Below, piece after piece: positions 40,881 through 57,373 of a DNA stretch of 64,000 nucleotides; positions within the stretch are counted from its first letter, which is position 1; every line of letters starts with the position of its first letter. Origin of the DNA: a virus. The DNA lies in IMG/VR virus record IMGVR_UViG_3300022752_000018, positions 119,193 to 183,192 of that record; one strand, written 5' to 3'. Under the pieces are notes generated by a model that saw only the letters and a program-made list of their open reading frames with translations, was not told the origin of the DNA and did not search any database. The translations under genes were made by a program, and so were the position numbers.

Positions 40881-42053
40881 ATGATGAACATTGATGACAT
40901 AGTTTTAGAGTTACAAAAAATAGGTTGGAATAATCTTAATCCATTAATACCTTTGAAAGATTTAAAAATACTAAAAAGTATAGCCAGTTGTATTGTTTCC
41001 CCTGCTTATATAACTGAAGCACAGGCTAACTTGGTAGTTAAAATCCTTAGAGAAAATTTAGAATATATTGATAATCAAAAATTAGACATTTCAACTTGCT
41101 TAAAAAATATAAAATGGTCCAATACTTTTCGAGTCATAAAAAAAGAAAGGAATGTTGAGATCATAACTAACGAAAATTCTGAAATTTACATAAAAATTGC
41201 ATCTACTTGGGATAGGCAAATAAACAAGATCCTTTTTTCTTTGGAAAAGATATTAAATTCAGAAAAACATTTAAAAAATATTTTTCCACTAAACGAAAAA
41301 AGCATCATTGAAATTTATCGAATTTTAAAACCTTTAAATTTTAACTTTTCTGCCGAATTTCTTGAATTTTTAGATAAAGTACAATCAATTGATTTAGAAA
41401 AAACTAAAAATCAATTTGTATTCGAAAACTTTTATCAATCTAAAAAAGACAAATTAAATCAATTTGATATCTTTGAAAATAGTTTAATCCAACTAGATAG
41501 GAAAATACGATATCAATATGTGTATGATAGTGATTTTGACGAAAATACTAAAAAAACATTAGAATATAAAATCGCCAATAGAAGCGATACCAGAGTATAT
41601 GTATCAAACTATACTAGCAGTTTTGATAATTTAGTAAACGCCTTACGAAACTTAAAACGAGATAAAATTTTGTTAGTCTTTGATATGAATAAAATAGATG
41701 AATGTCTATACTATCTTGATAAGGTTAAAAATTACACAAACCAGAATGAATTGAACAGTTATACTGGTATATATTTTAGATTTGATAATAAAGACAAGGG
41801 CAGTGAGTTCAATAAAATAATTAGTGATAATATGCTCAATGCTCTATTAAGTAAGAGTTCTAAACTAGTAGGTGTGAGTACTAGCAAACTACCTAAATTT
41901 TTACCCAAGTCTGATTGGTATCCAGACGCAGTCATTAGTTTCACAACCAGTCTAAGAAATAATAAAACTGATGTGTATTGTAATGATTGTGATTGTATAG
42001 TATACTACACTAACACAAAGCCATTAATATCAAATGTACATGAAATCCTGTAA
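40881..42053 (+). CDS. Unknown protein translationally linked to the UvsW-like helicase
   Basis: 390 aa, not recognised. The first 200 residues are helical and Lys/Asn-rich. The C-terminal half looks like an alpha/beta fold (ILLVFDMNK, LVGVSTSKLPKFLPKS, WYPDAVISF). It ends with a Cys-rich patch, VYCNDCDCIVYY. The last 20 nt overlap the next gene, which suggests coupled expression and perhaps a shared role in replication or recombination. A nuclease or helicase accessory function is possible but unproven. Confidence 0.5.
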   Translation: MMNIDDIVLELQKIGWNNLNPLIPLKDLKILKSIASCIVSPAYITEAQANLVVKILRENLEYIDNQKLDISTCLKNIKWSNTFRVIKKERNVEIITNENSEIYIKIASTWDRQINKILFSLEKILNSEKHLKNIFPLNEKSIIEIYRILKPLNFNFSAEFLEFLDKVQSIDLEKTKNQFVFENFYQSKKDKLNQFDIFENSLIQLDRKIRYQYVYDSDFDENTKKTLEYKIANRSDTRVYVSNYTSSFDNLVNALRNLKRDKILLVFDMNKIDECLYYLDKVKNYTNQNELNSYTGIYFRFDNKDKGSEFNKIISDNMLNALLSKSSKLVGVSTSKLPKFLPKSDWYPDAVISFTTSLRNNKTDVYCNDCDCIVYYTNTKPLISNVHEIL

Positions 42054-43506
42054 ATTAGTCATAAAAGATGAAGTAAACATAAAATTCGAAGGACTTCCAC
42101 TAGAGGCACGTCGTAAGTTGGCCAACACCTTCAAATATGTATTACCCTACGCACGTTTCCAACCTGCTTACAAGTTAGGGCGTTGGGATGGCACAACTAG
42201 CCTATTTGGGATTGGTGGATCTGGGTATTTAACACACATAGAGAAGATCCTAGATGTGCTTAATTCTATGGATATTGAAGTAACTGATATTGAAGATCAT
42301 AGATCCAATAAGCAAGTCTCTTTTACACCAGTTACTGAAACGTATTGGGCTGATCAAGGTAAGGTTTGGCCCAAAGGACACCAACAGGAAGGGCAACCTA
42401 TATTATTACGTGACTATCAAGTGGAAGCAATCAACACTTTTTTACAGCATCATCAAAGTCTACAAGAAATAGCTACTGGTGCTGGTAAGACTATCACTAC
42501 TGCTACACTAAGCCAACTATGTGAACCATATGGTAGAACTATAACCATAGTACCAAACAAAAGTTTAGTTGAACAAACTGAAGAGGACTTTCGTAATGTA
42601 GGTTTAGATGTTGGAGTATATTATGGAGATCGAAAAGAGCTGAACTGTACTCATACTATATGTACTTGGCAGAGTTTAAACATATTGGATAAAAAAAGTA
42701 AAAATGGAGAAACAGATCAACTGACACTGGCTGAATTTTTAGATGGCGTTAGTGCTGTAATAGTTGATGAAGTTCATATGGCCAAGGCTGAAATACTTAA
42801 GAATTTATTGACACGCAACCTAAATAATGCCTGTATACGATGGGGATTGACTGGAACCGTTCCTAAAGAACCTTATGAACATGAACAGATTTTCGCCAGT
42901 ATAGGACCATTAGTGGGAGGTATCAAAGCCAGTGAACTACAGGATAAAGGTGTATTAAGCAATTGTCATGTAAACATTGTACAACTCATTGACCTACCTG
43001 AATTTAAAAGTTACGCGGAAGAATTAAAATATCTTGTTACAGATGAAAATAGAATGATCTATGTGAGTAAGTTTATAAAAAATGTAGCAGACAAAGGCAA
43101 TACTTTAGTTTTAGTAAATAGAATTGACACAGGCAAATTTATAGTAAACGAATTAGAAGGCAGCGTATTCATTTCAGGCAATGTAAAAACCAAAGATAGG
43201 AAAGAAGAGTATGACGAAGTGGCAACGAGTCAGAATAAAATCATTGTCGCCACCTACGGTGTGGCAGCAGTTGGCATCAATATTCCTCGCATTTTTAATT
43301 TGGTTCTTATTGAACCTGGCAAGTCCTTTGTACGTGTTATACAATCGATTGGTCGGGGAATCCGTCGAGCGGAGGATAAGGACTTTGTTGAAATCTGGGA
43401 TGTGACCAGTACCTGTAAGTTTAGTAAGCGACATCTTACAGAACGTAAAAAATACTATAAGGAAGCTCAATATCCTTTTACCGTGGAAAAGATAGATTGG
43501 CAATAA
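42034..43506 (+). CDS. uvsW: SF2 DNA helicase, UvsW-like
   Basis: 490 aa, near the size of T4 UvsW (~500). It has an N-terminal domain of ~125 residues, then DYQVEAI, Walker A ATGAGKT (147-153), VPNKSLVEQT, DEVH (245-248), the GLTGT segment (motif III), and the C-terminal lobe with NTLVLVNR, IVATYGVAAVGINIPR and QSIGRGIRR (motif VI). UvsW-type enzymes unwind recombination intermediates and stalled forks and end origin-dependent initiation in T4. Start ATG 42034 overlaps the previous gene; ATG 42040 is an alternative. Confidence 0.85.
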   Translation: MYMKSCKLVIKDEVNIKFEGLPLEARRKLANTFKYVLPYARFQPAYKLGRWDGTTSLFGIGGSGYLTHIEKILDVLNSMDIEVTDIEDHRSNKQVSFTPVTETYWADQGKVWPKGHQQEGQPILLRDYQVEAINTFLQHHQSLQEIATGAGKTITTATLSQLCEPYGRTITIVPNKSLVEQTEEDFRNVGLDVGVYYGDRKELNCTHTICTWQSLNILDKKSKNGETDQLTLAEFLDGVSAVIVDEVHMAKAEILKNLLTRNLNNACIRWGLTGTVPKEPYEHEQIFASIGPLVGGIKASELQDKGVLSNCHVNIVQLIDLPEFKSYAEELKYLVTDENRMIYVSKFIKNVADKGNTLVLVNRIDTGKFIVNELEGSVFISGNVKTKDRKEEYDEVATSQNKIIVATYGVAAVGINIPRIFNLVLIEPGKSFVRVIQSIGRGIRRAEDKDFVEIWDVTSTCKFSKRHLTERKKYYKEAQYPFTVEKIDWQ

Positions 43507-44251: not shown

Positions 44252-44696
44252 ACTAAAAGACATTCTTAGTGCGTTGGATCAAAATGGAAAAGATATTTGG
44301 GATCTGCTTGATGATGAACAAAAAAAGGCTATCCCTTTTTTTGTTCTAAACAGATTTATGAGCAGTGTAAAGACTAATAGTAGAGAAGTACAAGAACACT
44401 ATGTACTAGCCACTAATGAATATTACAATAAACATTATTTTTCTCTATATCAACATCCTAAGTTACTTTGGTTACTACTTTGTAGTTGTTCTTATGATAA
44501 CGATAAGACTTATTTCCATGAATACATACGTTTAGAAAAAGATAAGAATGTTAAATTGAAAATACTTGAAAAACTATATCCTAAGAAAAAAATAGATGAT
44601 TTGGAAACATTGAGCCATTTGAATAGTCTAAAAGAAATAATGGAGCTGGCCAAAGATCATGGCTGGAATGATAAAGAAATTCAAGAATATCTCTAA
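44238..44696 (+). CDS. Probable clamp-loader small subunit (gp62-like)
   Basis: 152 aa from ATG 44238 (a GTG 9 nt upstream is possible). The segment IPFFVLNRFMSS followed by ATNEYYNKHYFSLYQHPKL and LLWLLLCS matches the layout of gp62-type clamp-loader small subunits, in which a P-F-x-x-N-R phrase and a helical bundle follow. gp62 partners the AAA+ subunit gp44 to load the sliding clamp. Neither gp44 nor the clamp is in this window. The assignment rests on motif order and on the surrounding replication genes. Confidence 0.5.
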   Translation: MAKLELKDILSALDQNGKDIWDLLDDEQKKAIPFFVLNRFMSSVKTNSREVQEHYVLATNEYYNKHYFSLYQHPKLLWLLLCSCSYDNDKTYFHEYIRLEKDKNVKLKILEKLYPKKKIDDLETLSHLNSLKEIMELAKDHGWNDKEIQEYL

Positions 44697-45376
44697 TGGA
44701 ATCATCTTTTATTTGTAATCATTGTCAGGCTAAATTTACTCGTGAAAAAACGCTATTTGTACACATCTGCGAACAAAAGCGTAGATTTTTAGCTAAAAAC
44801 GACAGACATGTTCAAATGGCTTTTTTGGCTTTTGATAGATTTTTCAAACTAAATCAAAAATCCTCATCACAAAAAACTTATGAAGAATTTAGTCAAAGTC
44901 CTTACTACACTGCTTTTGTAAAGTTTGGAAGTTTTTTACACAATGTAAATCCATTATATCCTGAAAAATTCATTGATTATATAGTTACTAGCGGTGTAAA
45001 ATTAGATCATTGGTGTAGGGAAAGTTTGTATTATGATTATGTAATTCATTTGATAAAAAATGAAAGTGTTGAAACAGCCCTGCAGCGTAGTATATCTACA
45101 ATGATGGATTGGGCTGATTCACACAATAGCATATGGAATCATTATCTTCATTATGTTAGTAGTAATAGGGTGACTTTTGATATTAAAGATGGCAAAATAA
45201 GCCCATGGATATTATTAAATAGTACTAGTGGTAAAACACTGCTAAACCAACTAACTGACGAACAATTATCCAGCATTGGTCCTATAATTGATTTGCCTTT
45301 TTGGACAAACAAATTTCGATCTAACAAAGATGATTTAGATCTCGCTTTTCAAGTTATAAAGGAAGGAAATTTATGA
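44696..45376 (+). CDS. Protein with N-terminal zinc finger
   Basis: 226 aa, starting inside the previous stop (TAATG). Residues 6-30 read FICNHCQAKFTREKTLFVHI followed by CEQKRR. This is a C-x2-C then H-x2-C arrangement, close to a C2H2-type finger with Cys as the last ligand. The remainder is helical with many aromatic residues and no known domain. A nucleic-acid-binding role in replication or late gene control is plausible from the finger and position. It overlaps the next small gene by 4 nt. Confidence 0.6.
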   Translation: MESSFICNHCQAKFTREKTLFVHICEQKRRFLAKNDRHVQMAFLAFDRFFKLNQKSSSQKTYEEFSQSPYYTAFVKFGSFLHNVNPLYPEKFIDYIVTSGVKLDHWCRESLYYDYVIHLIKNESVETALQRSISTMMDWADSHNSIWNHYLHYVSSNRVTFDIKDGKISPWILLNSTSGKTLLNQLTDEQLSSIGPIIDLPFWTNKFRSNKDDLDLAFQVIKEGNL

Positions 45377-45546
45377 GCATACCCAAAGAAGTAGAATTAG
45401 GTATCGAAGTGGGCTTGGTGGAAGAAGAAACAGCAATCTACGTAAAATTTACAGGATTTGAAAATCTAGACGATGCAGAAGAATATGCGGATTATTTGGC
45501 TGAAAATTTACCCTTACTCTTATTCAACAGTGAGACTAAACACTAA
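45373..45546 (+). CDS. Small acidic protein, unknown
   Basis: 57 aa, starting at the ATGA overlap with the zinc-finger gene and ending in a TAATG overlap with the DnaE-like gene. Sequence is acidic (VEEETAIYVKFTGFENLDDA). The overlaps on both sides and the uninterrupted frame argue that it is real. Function unknown; it could be a partner of the DnaE-like protein. Confidence 0.6.
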   Translation: MSIPKEVELGIEVGLVEEETAIYVKFTGFENLDDAEEYADYLAENLPLLLFNSETKH

Positions 45547-46112
45547 TGCCTGATATTGATATTGATTTTATAGATAGAGAACAGATTCTCAAAGAAGTTA
45601 AGCATGTCAAAGCTAGACGAGGAGATACTCAACATAATACTGGAATTTATATACAGAACATACCTCACGATCCTGTGACCAATATTTCTTCCCTTGATTA
45701 TAACGAAGCCGAAACTAAAGGCTATTTTAAAATTGATTTTTTAAATGTAGGAATATACAAGGGAGTTAAGAATGAAGCACATTTACAACAACTTATGGAG
45801 ATTGAACCAATATGGGAACTATTACTACAAGACGAGTTTACGGATCTACTATTTCATTTAAAAGGGCATGGTACTATTCTGAAGAAGACCCAGCCGACTT
45901 CCGTGGAACAATTAGCTGCTGTCCTAGCTATGATCCGCCCGGCCAAAAGACACCTGATTGGAAAAACTTGGACAGAGATTATGATGGACATCTGGACGAA
46001 ACCAGAGAATAACGAATTTTATTTTAAAAAGCCACATGCTATAGCCTATGCTATGGCTGTGGTAGTACAAATGAACTTGATTTGCGAGAGCATTAGTTAT
46101 GATTATGGTTAG
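45546..46112 (+). CDS. Compact DnaE-like (family C DNA polymerase) protein
   Basis: 188 aa. The motif order is that of bacterial DnaE palm/fingers: PDIDIDF (residues 2-8, like PDxDxDF), HNTGIYIQNIP (like H-x-x-G-V), GYFKIDFLNV with Asp64 (like VKFDFLG), then LLFHLKGHGTILKK and LAAVLAMIRPAKRHL (like the fingers segment ending RPGP), and FKKPHAIAYAMAVVVQMNLI (like FNKSHAAAYA). All three positions of the catalytic Asp triad appear present. The PHP, beta-binding and tau-binding parts of a ~1100-aa DnaE are missing. It may be a minimal polymerase, a DNA-binding remnant or an inhibitor. Family assignment is by eye. Confidence 0.55.
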   Translation: MPDIDIDFIDREQILKEVKHVKARRGDTQHNTGIYIQNIPHDPVTNISSLDYNEAETKGYFKIDFLNVGIYKGVKNEAHLQQLMEIEPIWELLLQDEFTDLLFHLKGHGTILKKTQPTSVEQLAAVLAMIRPAKRHLIGKTWTEIMMDIWTKPENNEFYFKKPHAIAYAMAVVVQMNLICESISYDYG

Positions 46113-46483
46113 ACTTTTCTAACCAATTCTACACTTTTACGTTTGGCTCTTTTAAGACTAAGATTTAAAATATTGAGTGTGGGACCCAGCAAAACTCTTA
46201 CACCTTTTGTACTAAAAGTCTTAATACAATACTTAAATGGATCCATTTCTACTTTTAGGAATATGCTGATAGGTATTAGTCTATTACTTTCCCACCACCA
46301 AGTCTCACCTAATAATAAGAATTGATTTTTTTCTTCTGACGTTTTGATAGTATCTATATCATAAAAAGTTGTAACAAATTGATCTTGATTGATTATGATA
46401 CCTACATACTCCTTATCACCGTAATTGATTACACTGATAAAAGGAAGTAGTTCTTTAGTAGTATCCTTTAATTTTTTAGTCAT
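46109..46483 (-). CDS. Unknown phage protein
   Basis: 124 aa from ATG 46483, preferred over upstream alternatives because it leaves the divergent gene's promoter and leader free. Alternating strands with FISVINYGDKEYVGIIINQD and LLLGETWWWESNRLIPISIF, then a basic C-terminus (LKRAKRKS). It overlaps the stop of the DnaE-like gene by 4 nt on the opposite strand. No family recognised. Confidence 0.6.
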   Translation of the reverse strand: MTKKLKDTTKELLPFISVINYGDKEYVGIIINQDQFVTTFYDIDTIKTSEEKNQFLLLGETWWWESNRLIPISIFLKVEMDPFKYCIKTFSTKGVRVLLGPTLNILNLSLKRAKRKSVELVRKV

Positions 46484-46488
46484 AAATA
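46481..46488 (+). promoter_or_regulatory. Late promoter box variant CATAAATA
   Basis: One mismatch to TATAAATA, 15 nt before ATG 46504. It overlaps the start codon of the divergent gene at 46483. Confidence 0.5.
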
Positions 46489-46503
46489 GTATTGAGAGCC
46501 AAG

Positions 46504-47334
46504 ATGCAAAAAGTCCAAGTTTATTTATATCCAAATCGCATAACAGTACTTAGTCATTTGGATACCAATCTAGCTAATACGGAGTATAGAATTGTGTACC
46601 AACGAACTGTAAAATTATACAAAGGCATAGATAATATCATTGAACTAGAAATTAAAAACAATGATCAAAAACGTATTGAAATTGGTATAGGATCTTTAAA
46701 ACTGACCCTAATGGATAAAAATTACAATACAATTAATATTTATACCGCTGATAGTTTAGAAGATAGTACCCAAGTAGGCCTAGCTAGAGTAACTATACCT
46801 AAAGAGGACTTGAATAACCTTGATCCACAATTTTTAAAATTTACAGTGACCAAGGTTAATGCTATATTTGAAGAATCTTTAACCTATACTAATTCTAATT
46901 TTGATGCCTACGGAACAATGGAACTTAAACAAGGTGCTCGCCCAGTTGATTATTCGGAAGTAATAAAATACGATAGGTGGACTACAGAAACTAACTATCA
47001 AGGTAGTCGATGGGAAGAAAGGAAAGTTTATCATATTAGTGAAGCCATTCCTCTTAGTCAAAATAGGGCTGTTTTGAAAGATATTGTTAGTATGGCTTTA
47101 TATATTAAAGATTTTATTGGTGAAATTTATGTCGAAGGCACTGATAATGAAGTAATTGGCAATGAAGCATTTAAAGATCCAAAGATTCTACACAGTTATG
47201 TTTATATGGGTCCTGATCTGATGAATTCGGTTATAATGATTCCTTCAGTCAATATTACCGGTTGTACTTACATGCGAGTGAAATATCTTTGTAAAAGCTC
47301 AGGATCAGTTGACTATGTAGAAATAAATGTGTAG
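46504..47334 (+). CDS. Virion-like protein inside the replication block
   Basis: 277 aa from ATG 46504 (a TTG 12 nt upstream is less likely). The N-terminal part (YRIVYQRTVKLYKGIDNIIE and KLTLMDKNYNTI) resembles the baseplate-upper-protein-type N-terminal fold used by tail proteins. The C-terminal half is strand-rich and ends in MRVKYLCKSSGSVDYVEINV. Its own late-type box fits a structural protein. Its place between the DnaE-like protein and the primase is unusual. No specific family name can be supported. Confidence 0.55.
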   Translation: MQKVQVYLYPNRITVLSHLDTNLANTEYRIVYQRTVKLYKGIDNIIELEIKNNDQKRIEIGIGSLKLTLMDKNYNTINIYTADSLEDSTQVGLARVTIPKEDLNNLDPQFLKFTVTKVNAIFEESLTYTNSNFDAYGTMELKQGARPVDYSEVIKYDRWTTETNYQGSRWEERKVYHISEAIPLSQNRAVLKDIVSMALYIKDFIGEIYVEGTDNEVIGNEAFKDPKILHSYVYMGPDLMNSVIMIPSVNITGCTYMRVKYLCKSSGSVDYVEINV

Positions 47335-47342: not shown

Positions 47343-48302
47343 ATGTCCTTAATTTCTGATACTATACTAAGTTATTTGCCTGGAAAACGCAAACAGACAC
47401 CAAGCGGTTGGATTAGCTTTAATGCTGTATGCTGCAGTGATCAACGACTTAGAGGTGGACTTATACAGAGTGGTACATCTATTAGCTATCATTGTTTTAA
47501 CTGTGGGTTTAAGGCTAGTTGGCAACCTGGACGCACTATTAGTTTAAAACTAAAAAAATTATTTGAATATCTCAATGTACCCAGTGATTTAATATCTAAA
47601 ATTACCATTGAAGCCCTAAGAAATAGAGATATTGAACACTATGAAATTATATCTAATATACCTAAATTTGAAACCAGACCTTTACCAGACAACGCTAGAC
47701 CGATTGTAGACTTGATTGATAACCCACCAAATGAACTGATTGTTATACTTGAATATATTCTAAGTAGAGGATTGGATTTGGATGACTATAACTTTTATTG
47801 GACTGATTCTAGTGGGTTAGGAAATAGATTAATTATTCCCTATTATTATAAGGGTAATATTGTAGGATATACGGCAAGAAGTTGTAATCAAGCCAAACCT
47901 AAATACATAGCTAGCCAACAACCAGGATATGTTTTTAACTTGGACGCTCAAAATGACCATAGAAAATTTGTCATAGTCTGTGAAGGTCAAATAGATGCTA
48001 TATCTATTGACGGGGTCAGTGTTAATGGATCAGAAATTAATCAGGCACAACACTTATTGATAAATCAATTACAACGTGAAGTAATTGTAGTACCTGATAG
48101 AGACCAAGCCAGTAAAAAACTTATAAGTTCGGCATTGTCCTATAATTATTCCTTAAGCTTCCCGTCTTGGGATGATGATGTCAAAGACATAAATGATGCT
48201 AGAAAAAAATATGGTAAACTACAAACTTTGACTATGATTTTGGATGCTGTTTGTACTAGTGAAGTTAAAATTAAATTAAAAGAAAAAGAATGGATAAAAT
48301 AA
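47343..48302 (+). CDS. DNA primase (gp61-like)
   Basis: 319 aa, near the length of T4 gp61 (~340). The zinc-binding N-terminus shows FNAVCCSDQRL (Cys30, Cys31) and ISYHCFNCGFK (Cys51, Cys54). The TOPRIM part has VIVCEGQIDAISI (Glu214) and IVVPDRDQASKKL (the DxD pair), needed for primer synthesis. It makes RNA primers for the lagging strand with the gp41-type helicase encoded two genes downstream. Confidence 0.8.
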   Translation: MSLISDTILSYLPGKRKQTPSGWISFNAVCCSDQRLRGGLIQSGTSISYHCFNCGFKASWQPGRTISLKLKKLFEYLNVPSDLISKITIEALRNRDIEHYEIISNIPKFETRPLPDNARPIVDLIDNPPNELIVILEYILSRGLDLDDYNFYWTDSSGLGNRLIIPYYYKGNIVGYTARSCNQAKPKYIASQQPGYVFNLDAQNDHRKFVIVCEGQIDAISIDGVSVNGSEINQAQHLLINQLQREVIVVPDRDQASKKLISSALSYNYSLSFPSWDDDVKDINDARKKYGKLQTLTMILDAVCTSEVKIKLKEKEWIK

Positions 48303-48324: not shown

Positions 48325-49332
48325 ATGAATTCTATTGGTAACTTAACAACAACTAAGGATCTAGGATTGGATACTCATTCAATGAACGAACTGTTAGAAA
48401 GACTTAATGGTTATACTAGAATATACGAAAAATTAAATAAAAAAATAGTAGCAGAAGAACTACTACATGTGGACGTAATGTTCTATAGGAATATGTATCC
48501 AGATTTGATTCCTTATGATTATGAAGCAACTGTACAGCATTATATATACTACGGCTCTATAGAAGGTAGACACGGAAGCCCATATAGCACCAGAGATAAT
48601 TTTGCTCAGTATGTTGCTAGTTATATAAATGCTGATATATTAGAGATTGGACCATTCACTAGGCCTTTACTTAAAGGTCCAAATATAAAATACGCAGATG
48701 TATATGACACAGAAACTCTTAGAAAAAGGGCAGCTAACTTTAATCTAGCCGTCGAAGATGTATGTGACGTTCATTATGTTATACCAGAAATGACGTTGAC
48801 TACTATACCAGATAAATTTGATATAGTAGTAACTAGTCATAATATTGAACATCAACCCAACCTAATTAAACATTTAAATGAAGTATATGATCTACTTAAA
48901 CCTAATGGAAAATTTTGTCTTATAGTTCCAGATCATAGATATTGCTTTGATGCTAACATGCCATTGACTAATATAGGTGATGTACTAGACGCATTTTACA
49001 GTGATAGAAAATTACATACACTTAAAAATTTAGTTCAACACTACTGCTTGGCTGTACACAATGATGGTAAAGAACATTGGCAATATCAGAATAGTGGGGA
49101 ACGTAGTTTATATCAACCAACCGATGTAATTAAGGTAATGAAAACTTTGATTAATTATGCCAATGCCGATAAGGAGTTTTATTTGGACGCACATGCTTGG
49201 TACTTTACTCCTTGGAATTTTAGCGATATCATGAACTGTTTGATTAAATTGGATTTGATACAATTTAAAAATGTTATATGTAACGGTACAGTAGAGAATC
49301 ATCAAGAATTTACTTGTATATTGGAGAAATAA
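48325..49332 (+). CDS. Class I SAM-dependent methyltransferase with N-terminal GR-type domain
   Basis: 335 aa. Residues ~50-90 contain FYRNMYPDLIPYDYEATVQHY then GSIEGRHGSPYS, a short domain often attached to glycan-modifying enzymes. The methyltransferase core follows: ADILEIGPFTRPLL (SAM-binding motif I), FDIVVTSHNIEHQPNLIKHL and LLKPNGKFCLIVPDHRY. A glycan or small-molecule methyltransferase fits this architecture better than a DNA methylase, as no NPPY or catalytic PC motif is seen. The last 3 nt overlap the helicase start (TAATG). Substrate unknown. Confidence 0.7.
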   Translation: MNSIGNLTTTKDLGLDTHSMNELLERLNGYTRIYEKLNKKIVAEELLHVDVMFYRNMYPDLIPYDYEATVQHYIYYGSIEGRHGSPYSTRDNFAQYVASYINADILEIGPFTRPLLKGPNIKYADVYDTETLRKRAANFNLAVEDVCDVHYVIPEMTLTTIPDKFDIVVTSHNIEHQPNLIKHLNEVYDLLKPNGKFCLIVPDHRYCFDANMPLTNIGDVLDAFYSDRKLHTLKNLVQHYCLAVHNDGKEHWQYQNSGERSLYQPTDVIKVMKTLINYANADKEFYLDAHAWYFTPWNFSDIMNCLIKLDLIQFKNVICNGTVENHQEFTCILEK

Positions 49333-50747
49333 TGACGAGACAAAACTCAGACTATGGCTATGATATTCAAAAGATTTACTTGGAACTGATGTTGAGTGAT
49401 GCCGAAACATTTATAAGATGCCAGAGCATATTTGATCATGAACTATTCGATCGTAAATTACAAAACACTGCAAAATTTATAAACGACTATGTAGTAGAAC
49501 ACAATGTTCTTCCCACATATGATATTGTGAACGCAGCAACTAATAGCAGTCTGTACAAACCCCAAGAAGAAATACGTGAGGAACATTACGATTGGCTACT
49601 ACAAGACTTTGAAACTTTTATCAAACATAAAGGACTAGAACGTGCTATATTATCCAGTGCCGATCTGTTGGAAAAGGGAGAGTATGGCCCGGTTGAAGAT
49701 CTAATTAAGAAGGCTGTTCAAATTGGTCTACAAAAAGATATGGGAACAGATTATTATGAAGATCCAAGAAGTAGATTAATGCGTATTAAAGATAAAAACG
49801 GACAGATCAGCACAGGTTGGGCCAGCTTGGATAATAAACTATTTGGTGGATTTAATCGAGGCGAACTTAATATATTTGCCGGTGGTAGTGGCGCAGGTAA
49901 AAGCTTGTTTTTAGCTAATTTAGGATTGAACTGGAGCTTGGCTGGATTGAACGTATTGTATGTTACACTGGAACTTAGTGAAGAATTGGTCAGTATGCGT
50001 ATTGATAGCATGGTAACAGATGTGTCTACTAAAGATATTTTTAAACAGATTGACGATGTAGAAATGAAAGTCAGAGTGATTGGCAAAAAGAGTGGACGGT
50101 TTCAAATTAAATATATGCCCAGCGGTAAGACAGCTAACGATCTACGCAGTTTTATGAAGGAGTATGAGGTAAAGACTGGTAAAAAGATTGACATATTGTT
50201 GGTTGATTATTTAGACTTGTTGATGCCTATAAGTCGCAAAATTAGTGCGGAGAATTTGTTTATTAAAGACAAATTTGTTTCAGAAGAGCTAAGAAATCTA
50301 GCTGTGGAAAAGAATGTAGTCTTGGTCACTGCCGCACAGCTGAATCGTGGCGCTGTAGATGAAATTAGTTTTGATCATAGTCATATCAGTGGTGGCCTTA
50401 GTAAGATACAGACTGCCGATAATGTATTTGCTATCTTTACCAGTAGGAATATGCGTGAAAAGGGCAGATATCAAATTCAATTGATGAAAACTCGTAGCAG
50501 TAGCGGCGTAGGACAAAGTATTGATTTAGAATTTAATATTGATACACTACGAATCACTAACTTGGATGATATTGAATCCACACAAAGCTATAAACCAAAT
50601 ACTTCAGTATTGGAGAATATTAAACAAAGATCTTCGGCACAAAAAGATGATCCCACACAGGGAATCAGTGTTAAGAACTCACAGGTAAAAGTAGAAGGAA
50701 CTAAACTACGTCAACTACTGAACAGTTTGAACACAGATGAGATCTAG
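49332..50747 (+). CDS. Replicative DnaB-family helicase (gp41-like)
   Basis: 471 aa, near T4 gp41 (475). An N-terminal helical domain (1-160) is followed by a RecA-type core: Walker A GGSGAGKS (184-191), the Glu-containing LYVTLELSEE, Walker B ILLVDYLDLL, VTAAQLNR, and ISGGLSKIQTADNVFA. It unwinds the fork ahead of the polymerase and recruits the primase two genes upstream. Start ATG 49332 is chosen because it forms the TAATG overlap with the methyltransferase stop. Confidence 0.9.
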   Translation: MTRQNSDYGYDIQKIYLELMLSDAETFIRCQSIFDHELFDRKLQNTAKFINDYVVEHNVLPTYDIVNAATNSSLYKPQEEIREEHYDWLLQDFETFIKHKGLERAILSSADLLEKGEYGPVEDLIKKAVQIGLQKDMGTDYYEDPRSRLMRIKDKNGQISTGWASLDNKLFGGFNRGELNIFAGGSGAGKSLFLANLGLNWSLAGLNVLYVTLELSEELVSMRIDSMVTDVSTKDIFKQIDDVEMKVRVIGKKSGRFQIKYMPSGKTANDLRSFMKEYEVKTGKKIDILLVDYLDLLMPISRKISAENLFIKDKFVSEELRNLAVEKNVVLVTAAQLNRGAVDEISFDHSHISGGLSKIQTADNVFAIFTSRNMREKGRYQIQLMKTRSSSGVGQSIDLEFNIDTLRITNLDDIESTQSYKPNTSVLENIKQRSSAQKDDPTQGISVKNSQVKVEGTKLRQLLNSLNTDEI

Positions 50748-51396: not shown

Positions 51397-51555
51397 TCCT
51401 ACTATTTGTCTTTGTGTCATTTCTTCATCGAATATTTCAATTTCTCGTGAATTAAGAGTTTGTCTTACATCCTTGGGTATTGTACTAAATCCTGTAATAA
51501 ACAATATTAATCCATAAACTAAAAATACAAAATATATGGCAGCTATAATTGTCAT
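51340..51555 (-). CDS. Two-TM small membrane protein, downstream partner of the cyclase
   Basis: 71 aa with two hydrophobic helices (~3-22 and ~50-69) joined by an acidic loop (REIEIFDEEMTQRQ). Its start overlaps the cyclase stop by 4 nt (ATGA), so the two are translationally coupled. Its 3' end overlaps the convergent holin-like gene. There is no cNMP-binding domain. It could be a membrane effector, an anchor or a holin/antiholin; nothing in the sequence decides. Confidence 0.65.
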   Translation of the reverse strand: MTIIAAIYFVFLVYGLILFITGFSTIPKDVRQTLNSREIEIFDEEMTQRQIVGLLLLFVPVFSFIWWLIIN

Positions 51556-52778
51556 CTCATTCTATTTTCATCAATAAACTTAATTTCATCAACTAGAGCA
51601 TCGGCGTCAGTCTTAAAATTATTAAACTCAGCTTTACTTATTGTTTTATTAAGATCTTCAAGTAATTTTTGTGCTGATGTGTCGTGCTCGGCTCTGGCTG
51701 CGTACAACCAACGAAATGCGTTTTTCTTGTCTGATATTTGGAGATAATATTTACCTAGACTAATCATTGCTGGTACTCTACGCTTCATGGCACTTTCTCT
51801 TAGATCACCTATAACATGCTCTATTTCGCTATCACTACTATTGGGATCACTGAATACCATTATGGCTAACCTATAACTGGCTTGTTCATTGACCTTGGCT
51901 GCTTGGCGTAGAAACTGTATGGCTAGGCTACGACTGTCGGACTCTACAAGGTCTGCTATTTTGATAGCTAGGTCGCTGTTAATTTTAGTACAGAACTCTC
52001 TGAATACAGCATGTACATAAGGTTTGAATTCAATAGGCACTAGGTTCTTTTGTAACATATTGATTAATTCATCAAGTGCTTGAATATCCTGTTTACTTAC
52101 TCGCCACATGAGTACACGAGTAGCAGGACCATACTTATTGTCATGCTTAAAAGTCATGGCATCATTTAATGTGCGATTACGAGCTGCTTGATCATTTAGT
52201 ACAGCAGCAATCATTTCGGCATGACTCTTAGTCGTAGTGGAAGTCTTCCTAACAGTTTTATTCAACCCTGGATTGGGACTGCTGCCCTCAATCTCCACAC
52301 TCCATATTTCCATAGGTTCAACATTTTTGAATTCTTGTATGCCCCTACTGATAAATTTATGATCTTTGATCTTACTGTTTACTAGCCTATATACAGCATC
52401 GGTCATAGTGACTCCACCAAGGTCAGCTAGACTTTCGCAACGTGCGGCTAGGTTAACGGCATCACCCATTAGGTTAGTGCCGTAGATCCACACTTCACCC
52501 ACATGCATGCCCACACGCCATCGCATGCCATTGTTTAATTTACTTAGCCTAGATTGCATCTCTATGCCAAAACGTACAGCATCAACAGCACTGGCGAACT
52601 CAATGAGCACACTGTCGCCCCCGGTGTTGAACAATCTACCTTTACTACTATCTATTAAAGGATCAATTATGGCACGGCAGGCATCTAACTTGGCCAAGGT
52701 CCCTGCTTCATCCCGCTGCATTAGGCTACTGTACCCAATGACATCACTACATATGATCGTTGCTAATTTAGTATCCAT
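51552..52778 (-). CDS. Class III nucleotidyl cyclase with helical repeat C-terminus
   Basis: 408 aa. Residues 5-160 form a bacterial-type class III cyclase: metal-binding Asp12 in IICSDVIGYSSLM and Asp55 in NTGGDSVLIEFASAVDAVRF, then RVGMHVGEVWIYG and NLMGDAVNLAARCE with transition-state Asn109 and Arg113. The two residues that select the base (Lys in KTTGD and Asp in DxxGD of adenylyl cyclases) are Asn51 and Asn102 here, so ATP use is not assured. Residues ~190-408 are helical, with Sel1-like repeats. It makes a cyclic nucleotide, presumably in the infected host. A consensus late box lies 5 nt upstream of the start. Confidence 0.85.
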   Translation of the reverse strand: MDTKLATIICSDVIGYSSLMQRDEAGTLAKLDACRAIIDPLIDSSKGRLFNTGGDSVLIEFASAVDAVRFGIEMQSRLSKLNNGMRWRVGMHVGEVWIYGTNLMGDAVNLAARCESLADLGGVTMTDAVYRLVNSKIKDHKFISRGIQEFKNVEPMEIWSVEIEGSSPNPGLNKTVRKTSTTTKSHAEMIAAVLNDQAARNRTLNDAMTFKHDNKYGPATRVLMWRVSKQDIQALDELINMLQKNLVPIEFKPYVHAVFREFCTKINSDLAIKIADLVESDSRSLAIQFLRQAAKVNEQASYRLAIMVFSDPNSSDSEIEHVIGDLRESAMKRRVPAMISLGKYYLQISDKKNAFRWLYAARAEHDTSAQKLLEDLNKTISKAEFNNFKTDADALVDEIKFIDENRMR

Positions 52779-52783
52779 ACTAC

Positions 52784-52791
52784 TATTTATA
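52784..52791 (-). promoter_or_regulatory. Late promoter box, exact TATAAATA, for the cyclase
   Basis: Exact consensus on the minus strand, ending 5 nt before the cyclase ATG at 52778. That spacing places transcription start at or next to the start codon. Confidence 0.65.
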
Positions 52792-52798
52792 GTACGAA

Positions 52799-53026
52799 TT
52801 ACTTAATTTGACTCCTCAACCTAGCTACTTCATTGTGTAGCTCTTTATGACGAGCATGTAACCTACGTAACTCTTGTTGTAGAACAGCTATTTGACGTTG
52901 TAATAATCGAACTACATCATAATCTTGTGGACTTTGCTTGACATTATTACCACCTAAAGTAAGAGGACTATTATTACTGGCTATGCTTGTTTCTATATTG
53001 TATTGATCTTGAATCATATTCTGCAT
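52799..53026 (-). CDS. Small coiled-coil protein upstream of the cyclase
   Basis: 75 aa from ATG 53026, which has an AAAAGGGGGG ribosome-binding site; the ORF extends upstream only through a TTG start. The second half is a heptad-rich coiled coil (LLQRQIAVLQQELRRLHARH). It lies 20 nt upstream of the cyclase start, on the same strand, so a three-gene unit with the cyclase and two-TM gene is likely. No domain recognised. Confidence 0.6.
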   Translation of the reverse strand: MQNMIQDQYNIETSIASNNSPLTLGGNNVKQSPQDYDVVRLLQRQIAVLQQELRRLHARHKELHNEVARLRSQIK

Positions 53027-53087
53027 TTTTGCCCCCCTTTTACTGTTTTTATTACTTATCAATTAAATACATATTATAGGATCTAGT

Positions 53088-53519
53088 TTGAAAGGACTTG
53101 AACAAGCCTTTGACCAACTCTTTGATGATACACTGAATAGACAAGGATGGTTGGTGCCAAAAAGCCTAAAAAGAGCTATGGTGTCTATTTTGGTGGAAAA
53201 ATTAGACAAAAATCCATGGCAACCAGAACCCAGCTATGCCCAACTGTATCTTACAGCACGTAGACCAGAAACTTTAAAATGGTTAGGAGATACTTGTTGG
53301 TTTACAAGAGCCATATTCCCCCAATTAGGTACACGCAGAGGTATTAGCGCTAGTTACTATACAGACTTGGGTCAAGGCTGTTATAGTCGATTATTAAACT
53401 ATATAGGCCCAGATAATAATCTTGAATTGATGATTCGTCATTTTGACTTTCTTGCTGAAGTGGCTTGGACTGTGGTACATAGCCAAGGACAATTTCGAAA
53501 AATGTGGAGCGAGGATTGA
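53088..53519 (+). CDS. Unknown phage protein
   Basis: 143 aa, TTG start with AGGA 6 nt upstream; no ATG is available in frame. Helical, Trp- and Arg-rich (GWLVPKSLKRAMVSILVEKL; DTCWFTRAIFPQLGTRRGIS), with GQFRKMWSED at the end. No family recognised. An ATTAAATA late-like box lies upstream. HemF follows 32 nt later. Confidence 0.6.
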   Translation: MKGLEQAFDQLFDDTLNRQGWLVPKSLKRAMVSILVEKLDKNPWQPEPSYAQLYLTARRPETLKWLGDTCWFTRAIFPQLGTRRGISASYYTDLGQGCYSRLLNYIGPDNNLELMIRHFDFLAEVAWTVVHSQGQFRKMWSED

Positions 53520-53551
53520 TATCTATTAAATAGTATTTTAATTAAAATGCT

Positions 53552-54433
53552 ATGTTAAAAGATCAAGCTCTAAAATTTTTTACAGAACTACAAACAGATA
53601 TTATCAATGGACTATCCACTATTGAGGATGACCCTTTTATTTCTGACAGTTGGACTAGACTAGAAGGTGGCGGCGGTACTAGTAGACTGGTAGAACTTGG
53701 CACTGTATTCGAACGTGGCGGCTGTAACTATAGCCATGTATTTGGAAAAAAACTACCACCCAGCGCCAGCGAACATAGACCTGAACTGGCAGGACAAAGC
53801 TGGGAGGCAGCAGGCGTTAGTTTGGTCCTGCATCCTAATAACCCCTACGTGCCCACAGCACATTTGAATGTGCGTATGTTTATTACAGAGTCAGGACAGG
53901 GATGGTTCGGTGGTGGCATGGATCTTACCCCATATTACTACTTTGAAGAAGACGCTGTACATTGGCATCAAACTTGTAAAAACGCTCTAGATCTTATTAA
54001 TACTGAACTATATCCCAAATATAAACAATGGTGCGATAACTACTTCGATCTTAAACATAGAAACGAATCAAGAGGCATTGGCGGCATATTCTTCGACGAT
54101 CTCAGCCAACCCTCAATGGAACAGGCGTTTGACATAGTTAAGGCCACTGGTCAGGCATTCTTAAAGGCCTACACACCCATAGTAATCTTGCGTAGAGATA
54201 TGCCCTACTCAGAACGAGAACGTGATTGGCAACTATATCGAAGAGGTAGATACGTAGAGTTTAATTTGGTCTACGACAGAGGCACTCTATTTGGTCTACA
54301 GAGCAATGGACGCACTGAAAGTATACTGATGAGTATGCCACCTCTAGTACGTTGGCAGTATGACTATCATCCTCCCCATGGTAGTAGGGAAGATGAACTA
54401 CTTAAGAACTTGATCCCAAAATCATACGTTTGA
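53552..54433 (+). CDS. hemF: Oxygen-dependent coproporphyrinogen III oxidase
   Basis: 293 aa (E. coli HemF is 299). It decarboxylates coproporphyrinogen III to protoporphyrinogen IX in haem synthesis, using O2. The family signature (KQWC then [18 protein letters not shown]) is complete, with [39 protein letters not shown] and [16 protein letters not shown]. The lengths and invariant residues look intact, so it is likely functional. It lies alone among unrelated phage genes and is an auxiliary metabolic gene. A TATTAAATA box lies ~19 nt upstream. It may sustain haem or chlorophyll precursor supply during infection. Confidence 0.93.
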
Positions 54434-54496
54434 TGCCGAAGGCTCCCGCGAAGCGGTAGAAACGGTAGGCCAAATTTTAAAACCATTACAATAAGA

Positions 54497-55150
54497 TTAC
54501 AACTTATTAACCAATAATCTTACGAAATCTGCTAACAAAGCATGATGAGTATAATGGTGCCAATAACGCCGCATATAGCGATCCATATACCAAAAACTGT
54601 CACTCTCAGGATGAGGCCCTATTAGGCCAATCCTACCCTCAATTAGTGCCGCACAATCACCATTAGTATAACTGGCTATGCTACTAGAAGGCTTGGCCCC
54701 TAATAGACTACACCCATCATAGAAAAACATGGTTTCATTATGACCCATCCAAGTAACATCAACTACTGTGCTATAACTACGATGTACACTGGCCCCTGGT
54801 CGCCGAATATACTGAACTGGATTGATATCACTGGCTAGATCAAAATATAAAGGACCGGCCCAGTAGGCTCCCATACAGATGCCTAGATAATGACCCCCTT
54901 GCAGAACATACTGCTGTACTTGATCTAGATAGGGCTCACAGATACGATGCCACGTGTCCGAATCACCTAAGCCCCCTGGCACGGCCAGTAACTGATACTT
55001 GCTTAACTTCTTTAATACTAGATCCGTGTTCTTTATACAGTCTACATTGGATATACCATATAAAGATGACAATACCTTTACAACACCGTGAGCACTTTGT
55101 AGACTACACTCAGGATGGTTAAGTAATACCGCGGCTTTGAGCTTGGCCAT
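54497..55150 (-). CDS. BPL_N/GATase1-like protein
   Basis: 217 aa. The nucleophile elbow is GICMGAYWAGP with Cys92, and the C-terminal His179-x-Glu181 sits in LIGPHPESDS, the triad pattern of class I glutamine-amidotransferase folds. Opening residues (AAVLLNHPECSLQSAHGV) and the layout resemble the N-terminal domain of eukaryotic-type biotin protein ligase (BPL_N), which hydrolyses or transfers small molecules. The substrate is unknown. It is transcribed towards hemF, with a TGTAAATA box 7 nt upstream of its start. Confidence 0.7.
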   Translation of the reverse strand: MAKLKAAVLLNHPECSLQSAHGVVKVLSSLYGISNVDCIKNTDLVLKKLSKYQLLAVPGGLGDSDTWHRICEPYLDQVQQYVLQGGHYLGICMGAYWAGPLYFDLASDINPVQYIRRPGASVHRSYSTVVDVTWMGHNETMFFYDGCSLLGAKPSSSIASYTNGDCAALIEGRIGLIGPHPESDSFWYMDRYMRRYWHHYTHHALLADFVRLLVNKL

Positions 55151-55220
55151 AATACTATATTTACACTAGAATTATGGAGTTTTGATTACATAGACTTTAC
55201 TTATCCCAACGGGCTAAATC

Positions 55221-55337
55221 TTAATCTTTGACCTCTTGCTTACTGCCCAAACTCCAACTGGCTAGAAATCCTAGAAATATGATAAATCCTATGACCTCAA
55301 CCCATACATCTAAACCAATCTCACTATAATCTATCAT
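55221..55337 (-). CDS. 38-aa single-span membrane peptide
   Basis: 38 aa (start MIDYSEIGLDVWVEV, then a hydrophobic stretch VIGFIIFLGFLASWSL and a KQEVKD end). An AAAGGA ribosome-binding site and a GCTAAATA late-like box precede it. The single span with charged ends suits a small membrane regulator. Function unknown. Confidence 0.6.
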   Translation of the reverse strand: MIDYSEIGLDVWVEVIGFIIFLGFLASWSLGSKQEVKD

Positions 55338-55373
55338 AATACAGATCCTTTCAAGAATTATTTAGCAGAATCC

Positions 55374-55403
55374 GAACCGGGGTCTACAATAAAAAAAATC
55401 CTG
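55374..55403 (+). repeat. 30-nt repeat, copy 1 (GAACCGGGGTCTACA...)
   Basis: Nearly identical to 56352-56380 (core GAACCGGG-TCTACA, A-run, CTG). The copies flank the metalloprotease gene. In one frame both read EPG-x3-KK, so they may be remnants of one coding sequence. Confidence 0.7.
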
Positions 55404-55436
55404 ATATGCCAATAACGTTAGTCATGAATAAAAGTT

Positions 55437-55444
55437 AATAAATA
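55437..55444 (+). promoter_or_regulatory. Late-type box AATAAATA
   Basis: One mismatch to the consensus, ending 4 nt before ATG 55449, as for several other genes here. Confidence 0.4.
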
Positions 55445-55448
55445 ATTG

Positions 55449-56288
55449 ATGCGAATTCATGAAATATTATCAGAAATAGGACAACCCACAAGTTTCAAAA
55501 CCGCACCGGTTTTACAGTCGCCCATGCGGCCGATGTCAGCTCAAGACAGAGCAATGTGGGTCGCACGAGGACAAAAACTGACTCAGCGACTCAAGAACAT
55601 ATATGCGGTATTAATTAACTCGATGGCTCAGGAAGATCAAAAAATGATACAGGGCGTGCCTGTTAGTGCTCCAATGGATGTGGATGTATTGGCCTATGCT
55701 CATACTAATATTACCGATCTAGCAAAAAAAGGTATAGAATTTGATATAGGCACATTTTGGAATATGACCGATAGCTGTCTAGCTTATGTACTGGGTCACG
55801 AAATTGGACACGTTCTACAGGAACGCTCAGGTGGTGTTACAAGTTATAAGAATAGATCTAGACCAGGTATTACGGATAAACAAAAGAGAGAGCTGAACCG
55901 AAAAATGGAATTGGATGCAGATGCCTACGGTGCTGTATTGGCCTACAAATGCGGCTATAACGCTAATGAAGCTAGAGCTTTTCTTAGTCGTGCTGAATTA
56001 CAAGAGCCTGAGGATCCTCAGGCAGATTATCCTAGTTGGAATACAAGACAAGCTGGTATAACTAAAGCAGTAAAGAACTACTCAGACCAAAGGCGTAGCG
56101 AAATAGAACCAGAAATGGACATGCATTTTCAACAAAGTTTACAGCGTCGTGGACCGTCACCAGAAGCTAAAGAAGATATACAACATGCTCTACACGGTAT
56201 ATCACAACTTAATGCTGTATTGGCAGCAATGCCAGAACTAGCTCAACCAGGTCCTATGCCTCCGGCTAGTAGTTTAAACTGGGCTTGA
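55449..56288 (+). CDS. HExxH zinc metalloprotease-like protein
   Basis: 279 aa from ATG 55449 (a TTG 3 nt upstream is in frame). The zinc motif is VLGHEIGHVLQE (His117, Glu118, His121), with a candidate third ligand in MELDADAYGA (Glu154), as in M48-like or related zincins. The N-terminus MRIHEILSEIG is a phrase also seen on head-associated proteins of T4-like phages. The C-terminus is Pro/Met-rich and likely disordered. Roles such as prohead maturation or host protein cleavage are possible; the substrate is unknown. Confidence 0.7.
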   Translation: MRIHEILSEIGQPTSFKTAPVLQSPMRPMSAQDRAMWVARGQKLTQRLKNIYAVLINSMAQEDQKMIQGVPVSAPMDVDVLAYAHTNITDLAKKGIEFDIGTFWNMTDSCLAYVLGHEIGHVLQERSGGVTSYKNRSRPGITDKQKRELNRKMELDADAYGAVLAYKCGYNANEARAFLSRAELQEPEDPQADYPSWNTRQAGITKAVKNYSDQRRSEIEPEMDMHFQQSLQRRGPSPEAKEDIQHALHGISQLNAVLAAMPELAQPGPMPPASSLNWA

Positions 56289-56291
56289 TTT

Positions 56292-56396
56292 ATGTACATG
56301 GTCAGCTTGGCGACTACGAATGTGCAACAACACAGATTCGGCCGGGATGGCGAACCGGGTCTACAGCTAAAAAAATTCTGCGCTAAGAAATTTTAA
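56292..56396 (+). CDS. Possible 34-aa peptide
   Basis: ATG three nt after the metalloprotease stop; the frame reads MYMVSLATTNVQQHRFGRDG and ends LKKFCAKKF. It contains the repeated EPG-coding element. There is no clear ribosome-binding site, so it may be a gene remnant. Confidence 0.25.
   Translation: MYMVSLATTNVQQHRFGRDGEPGLQLKKFCAKKF
56352..56380 (+). repeat. 30-nt repeat, copy 2
   Basis: Matches 55374-55403 apart from one missing G and a few substitutions; see that entry. Confidence 0.7.
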
Positions 56397-56545
56397 TATG
56401 AAGTACTTAAACTTTTCAGGGGGTTTTTCTGCCACCATGGGTTCTGTAGCAGCAGCGCTATAAAATATATAATTTATTTTTATAAAGCCACCACCATAAC
56501 ATTTATAATATTATAAAATAATAACCCTCCATAGTAGTAAACTAT

Positions 56546-56574
56546 TTGACAAGCTCAAAGACTTGTGCTACTAT
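56546..56574 (+). promoter_or_regulatory. Sigma70 promoter TTGACA-17-TACTAT
   Basis: TTGACA at 56546-56551, a 17-bp spacer, TACTAT at 56569-56574. It drives the only plus-strand early gene of this region. Confidence 0.85.
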
Positions 56575-56605
56575 ATGTTTTTTACTACACGACGGAGCCA
56601 TGCTT

Positions 56606-56872
56606 ATGTGCCATTGCTACACTGTTGACTACACTGAGTCGTTCAATGAACAACTCAAACACAACGAGGACTGGGAGCTTGAGGAGCAGTTCATAGAGCA
56701 GTTTGAGCGGGACTATGCTACTAGCCTAGAGGGTACCCGTAGCCGTAATGTAGGCGGGGTGGTGTTATACTATAAGGCACGTCGGGAAGTAGCCTTCTTT
56801 GACTATGAGAACATGGTGGGTAGTGTATACGCCCTAGGGGGTAAGCGAGCCAGTGCAGTATGCGACTGCTAG
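56606..56872 (+). CDS. Small early protein, unknown
   Basis: 88 aa from ATG 56606, which has GGAG 8 nt upstream; the ATG at 56600 is too close to it, and any start further up would lie in the promoter. Sequence MCHCYTVDYTESFNEQLKHN is acidic; it later has VVLYYKARREVAFFDY and a C-terminal VCDC. Cys/His at both ends could bind metal. A strong terminator follows. No family recognised. Confidence 0.65.
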   Translation: MCHCYTVDYTESFNEQLKHNEDWELEEQFIEQFERDYATSLEGTRSRNVGGVVLYYKARREVAFFDYENMVGSVYALGGKRASAVCDC

Positions 56873-56891
56873 CCCTAGAGCTCGATCAACG

Positions 56892-56914
56892 AGGACGCAC
56901 TGCGTCCTTTTTTT
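56892..56914 (+). terminator. Rho-independent terminator
   Basis: Stem AGGACGC/GCGTCCT with a 3-nt loop, followed by seven T. Ends the plus-strand early unit. Confidence 0.9.
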
Positions 56915-56931
56915 ATGACTATTTTCCGGCC

Positions 56932-56966
56932 AAAAAAAAGTCCTGATGGCATACTCACATCAGGAC
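56932..56966 (-). terminator. Rho-independent terminator, minus strand
   Basis: 9-bp stem GTCCTGATG/CATCAGGAC with a 9-nt loop, then eight T on the minus strand. It ends the leftward early transcript facing the plus-strand terminator. Confidence 0.9.
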
Positions 56967-56977
56967 CTAAAGGGAGA

Positions 56978-57310
56978 CTAGTCTAGTCTGCTGCCTGCGT
57001 ATACACGCTCAAGGCCTAACTGTTCCTTCAGTACATGAGCAAAGGCTTCAGCGCCATCTTCCAATATGCCCACGCTCTGTACGCCTAGTCGGCTGGGGTT
57101 CCAGTACTGTAGGCTACGCTGGTAGCCGTTGCGAGTAAAGCCTGAGGCCAACAGTGCTCGACCCAGTCGACTGTTAGCCCTAACGCCGTAGACGTCTACC
57201 CAAGCAAAGCCACAAGCGTCCCTATCACCACGTTGCTCTAAGCTCTTACGTGCCTGGCTGTTAGCGGCCTTCAATGCTTGCTCTACAGCCTGTTGTACCT
57301 GTTGTTCCAT
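56978..57310 (-). CDS. Early protein, unknown
   Basis: 110 aa, ATG with AGGAG 8 nt upstream. A helical start (MEQQVQQAVEQALKAANSQA) precedes CGFAWVDVYGVRANSRLGRA, LQYWNPSRLGVQSV and GAEAFAHVL. I believe this layout recurs in early regions of unrelated phages, but no function is known. It is the last gene before the minus-strand terminator and has its own sigma70 promoter. Confidence 0.65.
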   Translation of the reverse strand: MEQQVQQAVEQALKAANSQARKSLEQRGDRDACGFAWVDVYGVRANSRLGRALLASGFTRNGYQRSLQYWNPSRLGVQSVGILEDGAEAFAHVLKEQLGLERVYAGSRLD

Positions 57311-57343
57311 TTCGTTGCTCCTGTGTAATCTTTAAGTGTTCGT

Positions 57344-57372: not shown

Positions 57373-57373
57373 C

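What the first reader, a model, noticed from the sequence alone, without database searches (positions are those of the whole stretch)
45546..46112. 188-aa DnaE-like protein keeping the three catalytic Asp motifs
The motif order PDIDIDF, HNTG, KIDFLNV, fingers-like MIRPAK and FKKPHAIAYA follows bacterial DnaE, but the spacing is collapsed (59 instead of ~150 residues between Asp motifs) and PHP and clamp-binding domains are gone. T4-like phages normally use a family B polymerase. A protein this small may be a minimal polymerase, a translocated regulator or a decoy for host replisome parts.
Basis: partly seen in the sequence, partly recalled or inferred. Interest (0 to 1): 0.65.

Follow-up and report, generated by a model that had tools for sequence, protein, structure and literature searches.

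The report
Half of a split phage polymerase
This small protein is the metal-binding half of a pared-down bacterial-type DNA polymerase (Pol III alpha) that a large family of mostly giant phages keeps as two separate genes beside its normal T4-type polymerase; the split enzyme was described from sequence in 2021, and nobody appears to have tested what it does.

Summary
ORF 45546-46112 (+) encodes 188 aa with the family C polymerase motifs in order (MPDIDIDF, KIDFLN, IRPAK, FKKPHAIAYA) and 59 residues between the catalytic Asp motifs. It is the C-terminal half of a split, minimal Pol III alpha, already described by Iyer et al. 2021 in T4-like 'group 2.2' jumbo phages; it is not a complete polymerase. 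HMM-HMM alignment to DnaE gives three collinear blocks (E. coli 399-419, 509-641, 740-767; the thumb and much of the fingers are gone). D401, D403, K553, D555, R639 and H760 equivalents are invariant across 33 aligned relatives. AF2/Foldseek retrieves only Pol III alpha/PolC as its best 15 PDB matches. The missing N-terminal half (GRGS nucleotide-binding motif, E. coli 264-393) is a separate gene in the same phages: 58 of the 60 listed phage records, and the two largest close relatives, 180-184 kb away. The window's contig starts about 45 kb past where that gene lies in its relative G001. Close relatives also carry a family B polymerase with intact motifs. The likeliest function is a two-subunit nucleotidyltransferase core working near primase, helicase and clamp loader. 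Activity is unproven.

The parts
45546..46112 (+). C-terminal (Mg2+/template-binding) unit of the split minimal Pol III alpha, 188 aa
   Evidence: phrog_11778 3.6e-66; HMM-HMM to DnaE; AF2 and Foldseek
45549..45569 (+). PDIDIDF strand; D3 and D5 = E. coli DnaE D401 and D403 (catalytic metal ligands)
   Evidence: D3, D5, D7 invariant
45729..45737 (+). K62-I-D64 = E. coli K553 and D555 (triphosphate contact and third catalytic Asp)
   Evidence: K62 and D64 invariant
45936..45947 (+). RPAK fingers motif, R131/P132 = E. coli R639/P640
   Evidence: R131, P132, K134 invariant
46023..46049 (+). FKKPHAIAY, H164 = E. coli H760; last conserved block of the fingers
   Evidence: H164 and Y168 invariant
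45373..45546 (+). 57-aa ORF whose TAA stop overlaps the ATG of the C-unit (TAATG)
   Evidence: no Pfam or PHROG match
44696..45376 (+). 226-aa protein with N-terminal zinc-finger-like CxxC...HxxxC, phrog_11058; the protein just upstream of the C-unit in phage PAC2 is annotated C2H2-type
46109..46534 (-). convergent small gene, phrog_11637; a convergent small gene lies next to the C-unit in most of the phages examined
42034..43506 (+). UvsW-type DNA helicase
47343..48302 (+). DnaG-type (Toprim) DNA primase
   Evidence: phrog_47 1e-41
49314..50747 (+). DnaB-like replicative helicase (T4 gp41 type)
   Evidence: phrog_19 4e-69

Best explanation
The gene encodes the C-terminal half of a phage-specific, minimal, two-gene family C (Pol III alpha) catalytic core. 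Its partner, a ~170-aa protein (phrog_11127), carries the GRGS nucleotide-binding helix-loop and ends at E. coli DnaE residue 393. The window protein begins at residue 399. The two chains most likely assemble into one Pol-beta-like palm with a reduced fingers domain: the C-unit supplies the three metal-binding Asp, K553 and the template-side H760 region, and the N-unit supplies the GRGS site for the dNTP triphosphate. The assembled heterodimer adds nucleotides to a primer end at or near the phage fork (its genes sit beside primase-helicase and clamp loader), as an accessory to the family B replicase, for example in primer extension, gap filling or repair. Shown here: homology, collinearity, invariance of active-site residues, the exact split point, co-occurrence, purifying selection, fold of each half, gene neighbourhood. 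Inferred: physical association, catalysis, and the biological role.
For: HMM-HMM: C-unit to DnaE P=1.3e-7 (three collinear blocks), N-unit to DnaE P=2.6e-11; column-shuffle control maximum 31.4 against 62.9. The split is exact and conserved: all 80 C-units start at the PDID motif and 79 of 80 N-units end 35-36 residues after GxGRGS. Invariant residues map to the active site. Both halves fold as Pol III alpha pieces: N-unit pLDDT 91.8 with the top 7 PDB hits Pol III alpha, C-unit pLDDT 86.8 with the top 15 hits Pol III alpha/PolC. Co-occurrence: 58 of 60 listed phage records by tblastn, a 59th by profile, and CM1, G001 and G003. Neighbours are UvsW, primase and DnaB for the C-unit and the clamp loader and GroES for the N-unit. 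dN/dS 0.05-0.26. Independent published prediction: Iyer et al. 2021, PMC7824862.
Against: No biochemical data were found. The thumb (E. coli ~420-508) and the fingers segment ~642-739, which in DnaE holds the paired Arg 709/710 said to contact the triphosphate (own knowledge), are absent, so primer-template grip and triphosphate binding must be rebuilt another way. An intact family B replicase is present in relatives, so a second polymerase is not obviously needed. The complex could not be modelled. Foldseek TM-scores are modest (0.32-0.45 of query) because each half is a cut piece of a domain.
Confidence: 0.66

Rival explanations
1. The N- and C-units form an active nucleotidyltransferase that is not a template-directed polymerase (for example a terminal transferase, primer-forming or end-tailing enzyme, or nucleotide ligand synthase), since the thumb and half of the fingers are gone.
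For: Catalytic residues kept, template- and primer-gripping parts removed; pol-beta-fold enzymes include many non-polymerase NTases (own knowledge).
Against: The fingers motifs RPxK and FKKxHAxxYA and the region around H760 are as invariant as the Asp residues; gene neighbours are replication genes.
Confidence: 0.17
2. A catalytically silent palm/fingers mimic that binds host or phage replisome parts (decoy, regulator or structural subunit).
For: Small size; clamp- and tau-binding domains absent; an intact PolB is present.
Against: Metal-binding Asp, K62 and the partner's GRGS are invariant over proteins only 32-53% identical to the window protein; a decoy need not keep these.
Confidence: 0.12
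3. A self-sufficient single-chain minimal polymerase of 188 aa.
For: Three Asp motifs present.
Against: It lacks the GRGS half of the palm, which is a separate conserved gene in the same phages; the Asp strand is the least confident part of the lone model (mean pLDDT 68 for residues 1-10).
Confidence: 0.03
4. A truncated or frameshifted relic of a full-length DnaE.
For: Short; annotated 'truncated' in phage CBB for the other half (PMC5259590).
Against: Same boundaries in 80 of 80 relatives, dN/dS 0.13-0.15, no neighbouring DnaE remnants in the searches run.
Confidence: 0.02

Closest known systems
Split minimal DNA polymerase III alpha of group 2.2 jumbo phages (Iyer et al. 2021, Viruses 13:63, PMC7824862; PHROG families phrog_11778 = C-unit and phrog_11127 = N-unit)
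   Same: Same protein family, same split, same co-occurrence with family B polymerase and distant N- and C-genes.
   Different: This is a metagenomic lineage whose nearest isolated phage is Atu_ph07 (53% identity); here the exact split residues, residue-level conservation, selection and fold searches of each half are added, and a 141-kb (non-jumbo) phage, Slicko01, is found to carry both halves.
Bacterial DnaE / Pol III alpha (E. coli DnaE, PF07733 + PF17657)
   Same: Palm Asp triad, K553, R639, H760 blocks in order; Pol III alpha structures are the best fold matches.
   Different: No PHP, thumb, clamp-binding, OB or tau-binding domains; ~100 residues of fingers deleted; encoded in two pieces.
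T4 gp43 family B replicase
   Same: Present in the same phages (intact DTDS, SLYPS, KxxxNSLYG and exo motifs in G001-G003).
   Different: Unrelated fold; a separate gene; not this protein.

Membership tests
Family C DNA polymerase (DnaE/PolC) catalytic core | Catalytic Asp triad (E. coli D401, D403, D555) in the palm | tested here: met
   D3, D5, D64 aligned and invariant
Family C DNA polymerase (DnaE/PolC) catalytic core | Significant profile match to DnaE and palm fold | tested here: met
   hhalign P=1.3e-7 with shuffle control; Foldseek top 15 hits Pol III alpha/PolC, best E 9.4e-4
Family C DNA polymerase (DnaE/PolC) catalytic core | GRGS nucleotide-binding element in the same palm | tested here: inconclusive
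   Not in this chain; present in the separate partner N-unit of relatives (PF07733 E 2e-8, invariant GRGS). That the two chains form one palm is inferred. The partner gene lies outside the window's 183-kb contig
Family C DNA polymerase (DnaE/PolC) catalytic core | Thumb, full fingers (incl. E. coli R709/R710), PHP, clamp-binding and OB domains | tested here: not met
   Regions 420-508 and 642-739 absent; the chain ends shortly after the H760 helix; the N-unit has no PHP match
Family C DNA polymerase (DnaE/PolC) catalytic core | DNA polymerase activity | not testable with these tools
   No experimental data found
Split minimal Pol III alpha of group 2.2 jumbo phages (Iyer 2021) | C-terminal unit as a stand-alone gene starting at the PDIDIDF strand | tested here: met
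Split minimal Pol III alpha of group 2.2 jumbo phages (Iyer 2021) | Distant separate N-terminal unit in the same genome | tested here: met
   Met in close relatives G001 (180 kb apart) and G003 (184 kb apart) and in 58 of 60 listed phage records. Not seen in G000 itself, whose contig starts about 45 kb short of it
Split minimal Pol III alpha of group 2.2 jumbo phages (Iyer 2021) | Accompanied by a family B polymerase | tested here: met
   6 of 7 records; the exception is G000, whose collinear PolB site also falls off the contig

The most novel reading that the evidence does not exclude
The two units form an active bacterial-type (family C) polymerase that works at the same fork as the phage's family B replicase, i.e. 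a hybrid replisome in which a very small family C catalytic core, made of two free-standing chains without thumb or PHP, does one dedicated job such as primer hand-off or lagging-strand synthesis.
Probability: 0.27. Interest if true: 0.75.

Novelty: new member of a known kind. Interest (0 to 1): 0.4.

Why it matters
If active, this is a naturally occurring, heavily reduced two-chain Pol III core, useful for asking which parts of the bacterial replicase are needed for catalysis, and it would mean that a widespread group of large phages runs bacterial-type and eukaryote-type polymerases side by side. The family has hundreds of members in IMG/VR but the activity has apparently not been tested; relatives in lab coliphages (121Q, PBECO4) make the test easy.

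Tried and rejected
Own-contig search for the N-unit with PF07733, a CBB N-unit and an N-unit alignment: negative, explained by the contig edge. Own-contig PolB: negative for the same reason. A proofreading DnaQ partner: present in CBB and Atu_ph07 but no significant match in G001 or G003, so not a general partner. Intein or trans-splicing of the halves: N- and C-units end and start cleanly with no intein sequence. Natural N+C fusion: none among 80 C- and 80 N-loci. A two-chain complex could not be predicted with the tools.

Full report
OBSERVATION. D5 to D64 is 59 residues, against 152 between E. coli D403 and D555. The ATG overlaps the stop of a 57-aa ORF (TAATG), and a convergent gene overlaps its stop.

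IS THE DnaE RESEMBLANCE REAL? Single-sequence searches are marginal (Pfam DNA_pol3_finger E 0.035; phmmer to 5lew E 0.51), but PHROG phrog_11778 'DNA polymerase' matches at 3.6e-66. I aligned the window protein with 80 IMG/VR and seven phage relatives and compared that profile with a DnaE profile (E. coli plus viral DnaE). hhalign gave three collinear blocks: window 1-19 to E. coli 399-419, 28-133 to 509-641 (P 1.3e-7) and 145-171 to 740-767. Column-shuffled versions scored at most 31.4 against 62.9. A profile search of PDB sequences returns Pol III alpha first. Residues invariant in the 33-sequence alignment include D3, D5, K62, D64, R131, P132 and H164, which align with E. coli D401, D403, K553, D555, R639, P640 and H760. 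The deleted stretches are the thumb (about 420-508) and a fingers segment (about 642-739).

STRUCTURE. AlphaFold2 gives the window protein a mean pLDDT of 86.8 and pTM 0.76, with the Asp motifs on strands 4-7 and 62-66. Foldseek against the PDB returns Pol III alpha or PolC for all of the first 15 hits (best E 9.4e-4, probability 1.00). TM-scores are modest because the piece is half a domain. The least confident part is residues 1-10, the catalytic strand (mean pLDDT 68), as expected if a partner is missing.

THE OTHER HALF. Phage CBB gp328 (172 aa, PF07733 E 2e-8; phrog_11127) is the N-terminal part of the palm with the GRGS motif. Its family aligns to E. coli 264-393 (P 2.6e-11), so the two units leave a gap of five residues. 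In 80 IMG/VR N-units the frame ends 35-36 residues after the start of GxGRGS in 79 cases; in 80 of 80 C-units a stop lies in frame shortly upstream of the PDID motif. The N-unit model (pLDDT 91.8) has Pol III alpha as its top seven PDB hits (best E 0.019, so supportive rather than conclusive). Of 60 listed phage records with a C-unit, 58 also have an N-unit by tblastn. The exceptions are a 109-kb Klebsiella record and Slicko01, where a profile finds it (E 3.7e-19). CM1 has both. The genes lie 15 to 224 kb apart in the annotated jumbo phages that I compared. Slicko01 is a circular 141-kb record with the two genes about 11 kb apart, so the pair is not restricted to jumbo phages.

WHY THE N-UNIT IS NOT IN THIS CONTIG. 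The window is the right-hand 64 kb of a 183,192-bp virus record with no N-unit or family B polymerase. The two largest close relatives in which an N-unit was found, G001 (365 kb) and G003 (270 kb), have both, with the N-unit 180-184 kb upstream of the C-unit. A third, G002 (280 kb), has PolB but no N-unit; its contig ends about where the N-unit would be expected at that spacing. The first 3 kb of G000 are collinear with G001 at 147.4-144.4 kb, whereas G001 has PolB at 167 kb and the N-unit at 192 kb. The contig therefore begins about 20 kb past PolB and 45 kb past the N-unit site. This absence is an edge effect.

CONTEXT. The C-unit sits between a UvsW helicase and a primase-DnaB pair, with the same order or close to it in PAC2, CBB and others. 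The N-unit sits near a GroES-type gene and the gp44-type clamp loader. PolB in G001-G003 keeps the DTDS, SLYPS, KxxxNSLYG and exonuclease motifs, so the split enzyme is an addition, not a replacement. dN/dS of the C-unit is 0.05-0.26 between relatives with measurable dS.

LITERATURE. Iyer et al. [quoted passage not shown] Earlier genome papers noted the N-unit only (CBB_328, PMC5259590; Atu_ph07 gp316, PMC6102473). I found no experimental follow-up in the open library; subscription papers are not covered.

MECHANISM. I take the likeliest reading to be a heterodimeric catalytic core whose active site forms across the two chains. Homology, split point, invariance and co-occurrence are shown; assembly, catalysis and role are inferred. 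Loss of the thumb and of the R709/R710 segment leaves open whether it is a processive polymerase, a short-gap filler, or a non-templated transferase. Confidence that the gene is the C-terminal half of the split Pol III alpha is about 0.95; that the pair is a template-directed catalyst, about 0.66.

VERDICT. A correct observation of a real, conserved and already described protein family. The locus is a new metagenomic member; the scientific question it raises, what a two-chain family C core does next to a T4-type replicase, remains open.

Noticed in passing
window 53552-54433: Phage-borne coproporphyrinogen III oxidase (HemF, Pfam E 5e-123). Also present in the three closest relatives G004, G010 and G011 but not in G001-G003; among 50,697 phage records only three match, none of which looks like a close relative, so it appears to be an auxiliary metabolic gene specific to this clade.
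   Followed up: partly
L108:2825-4558 (Bacteroides phage BS-TP1, PQ571274.1): A 577-aa 'DNA polymerase' holds PHP and the N-terminal DnaE palm, then breaks just before the PDIDIDF strand into what looks like an intein-type sequence. This is the same break position as the jumbo-phage split, suggesting a fractured dnaE with a split intein.
   Followed up: no
L114 and L170 (Alishewanella phage Slicko01, OQ508956.1, 141 kb circular): A phage below the jumbo size limit carries both halves of the split Pol III alpha, about 11 kb apart, and PF00136 matches in two separate frames that may be a split family B polymerase.
   Followed up: partly
window 24032-35230 and 19266-23951: Very long ORFs (3732 and 1561 aa) made of repeated Ig/fibronectin-like units ('P..SGT...G..L....GTW.G...I.Y.YQW.R'), probably tail fibre or adhesion proteins.
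   Followed up: no
window 7174-9858: 894-aa protein with long collagen-like GIQGIQG repeats.
   Followed up: no
window 51500-64000: GC rises from about 0.33 to 0.46 and the GC skew changes sign towards the right end. hemF in this stretch is shared with close relatives, so at least that part is not a misassembly.
   Followed up: partly
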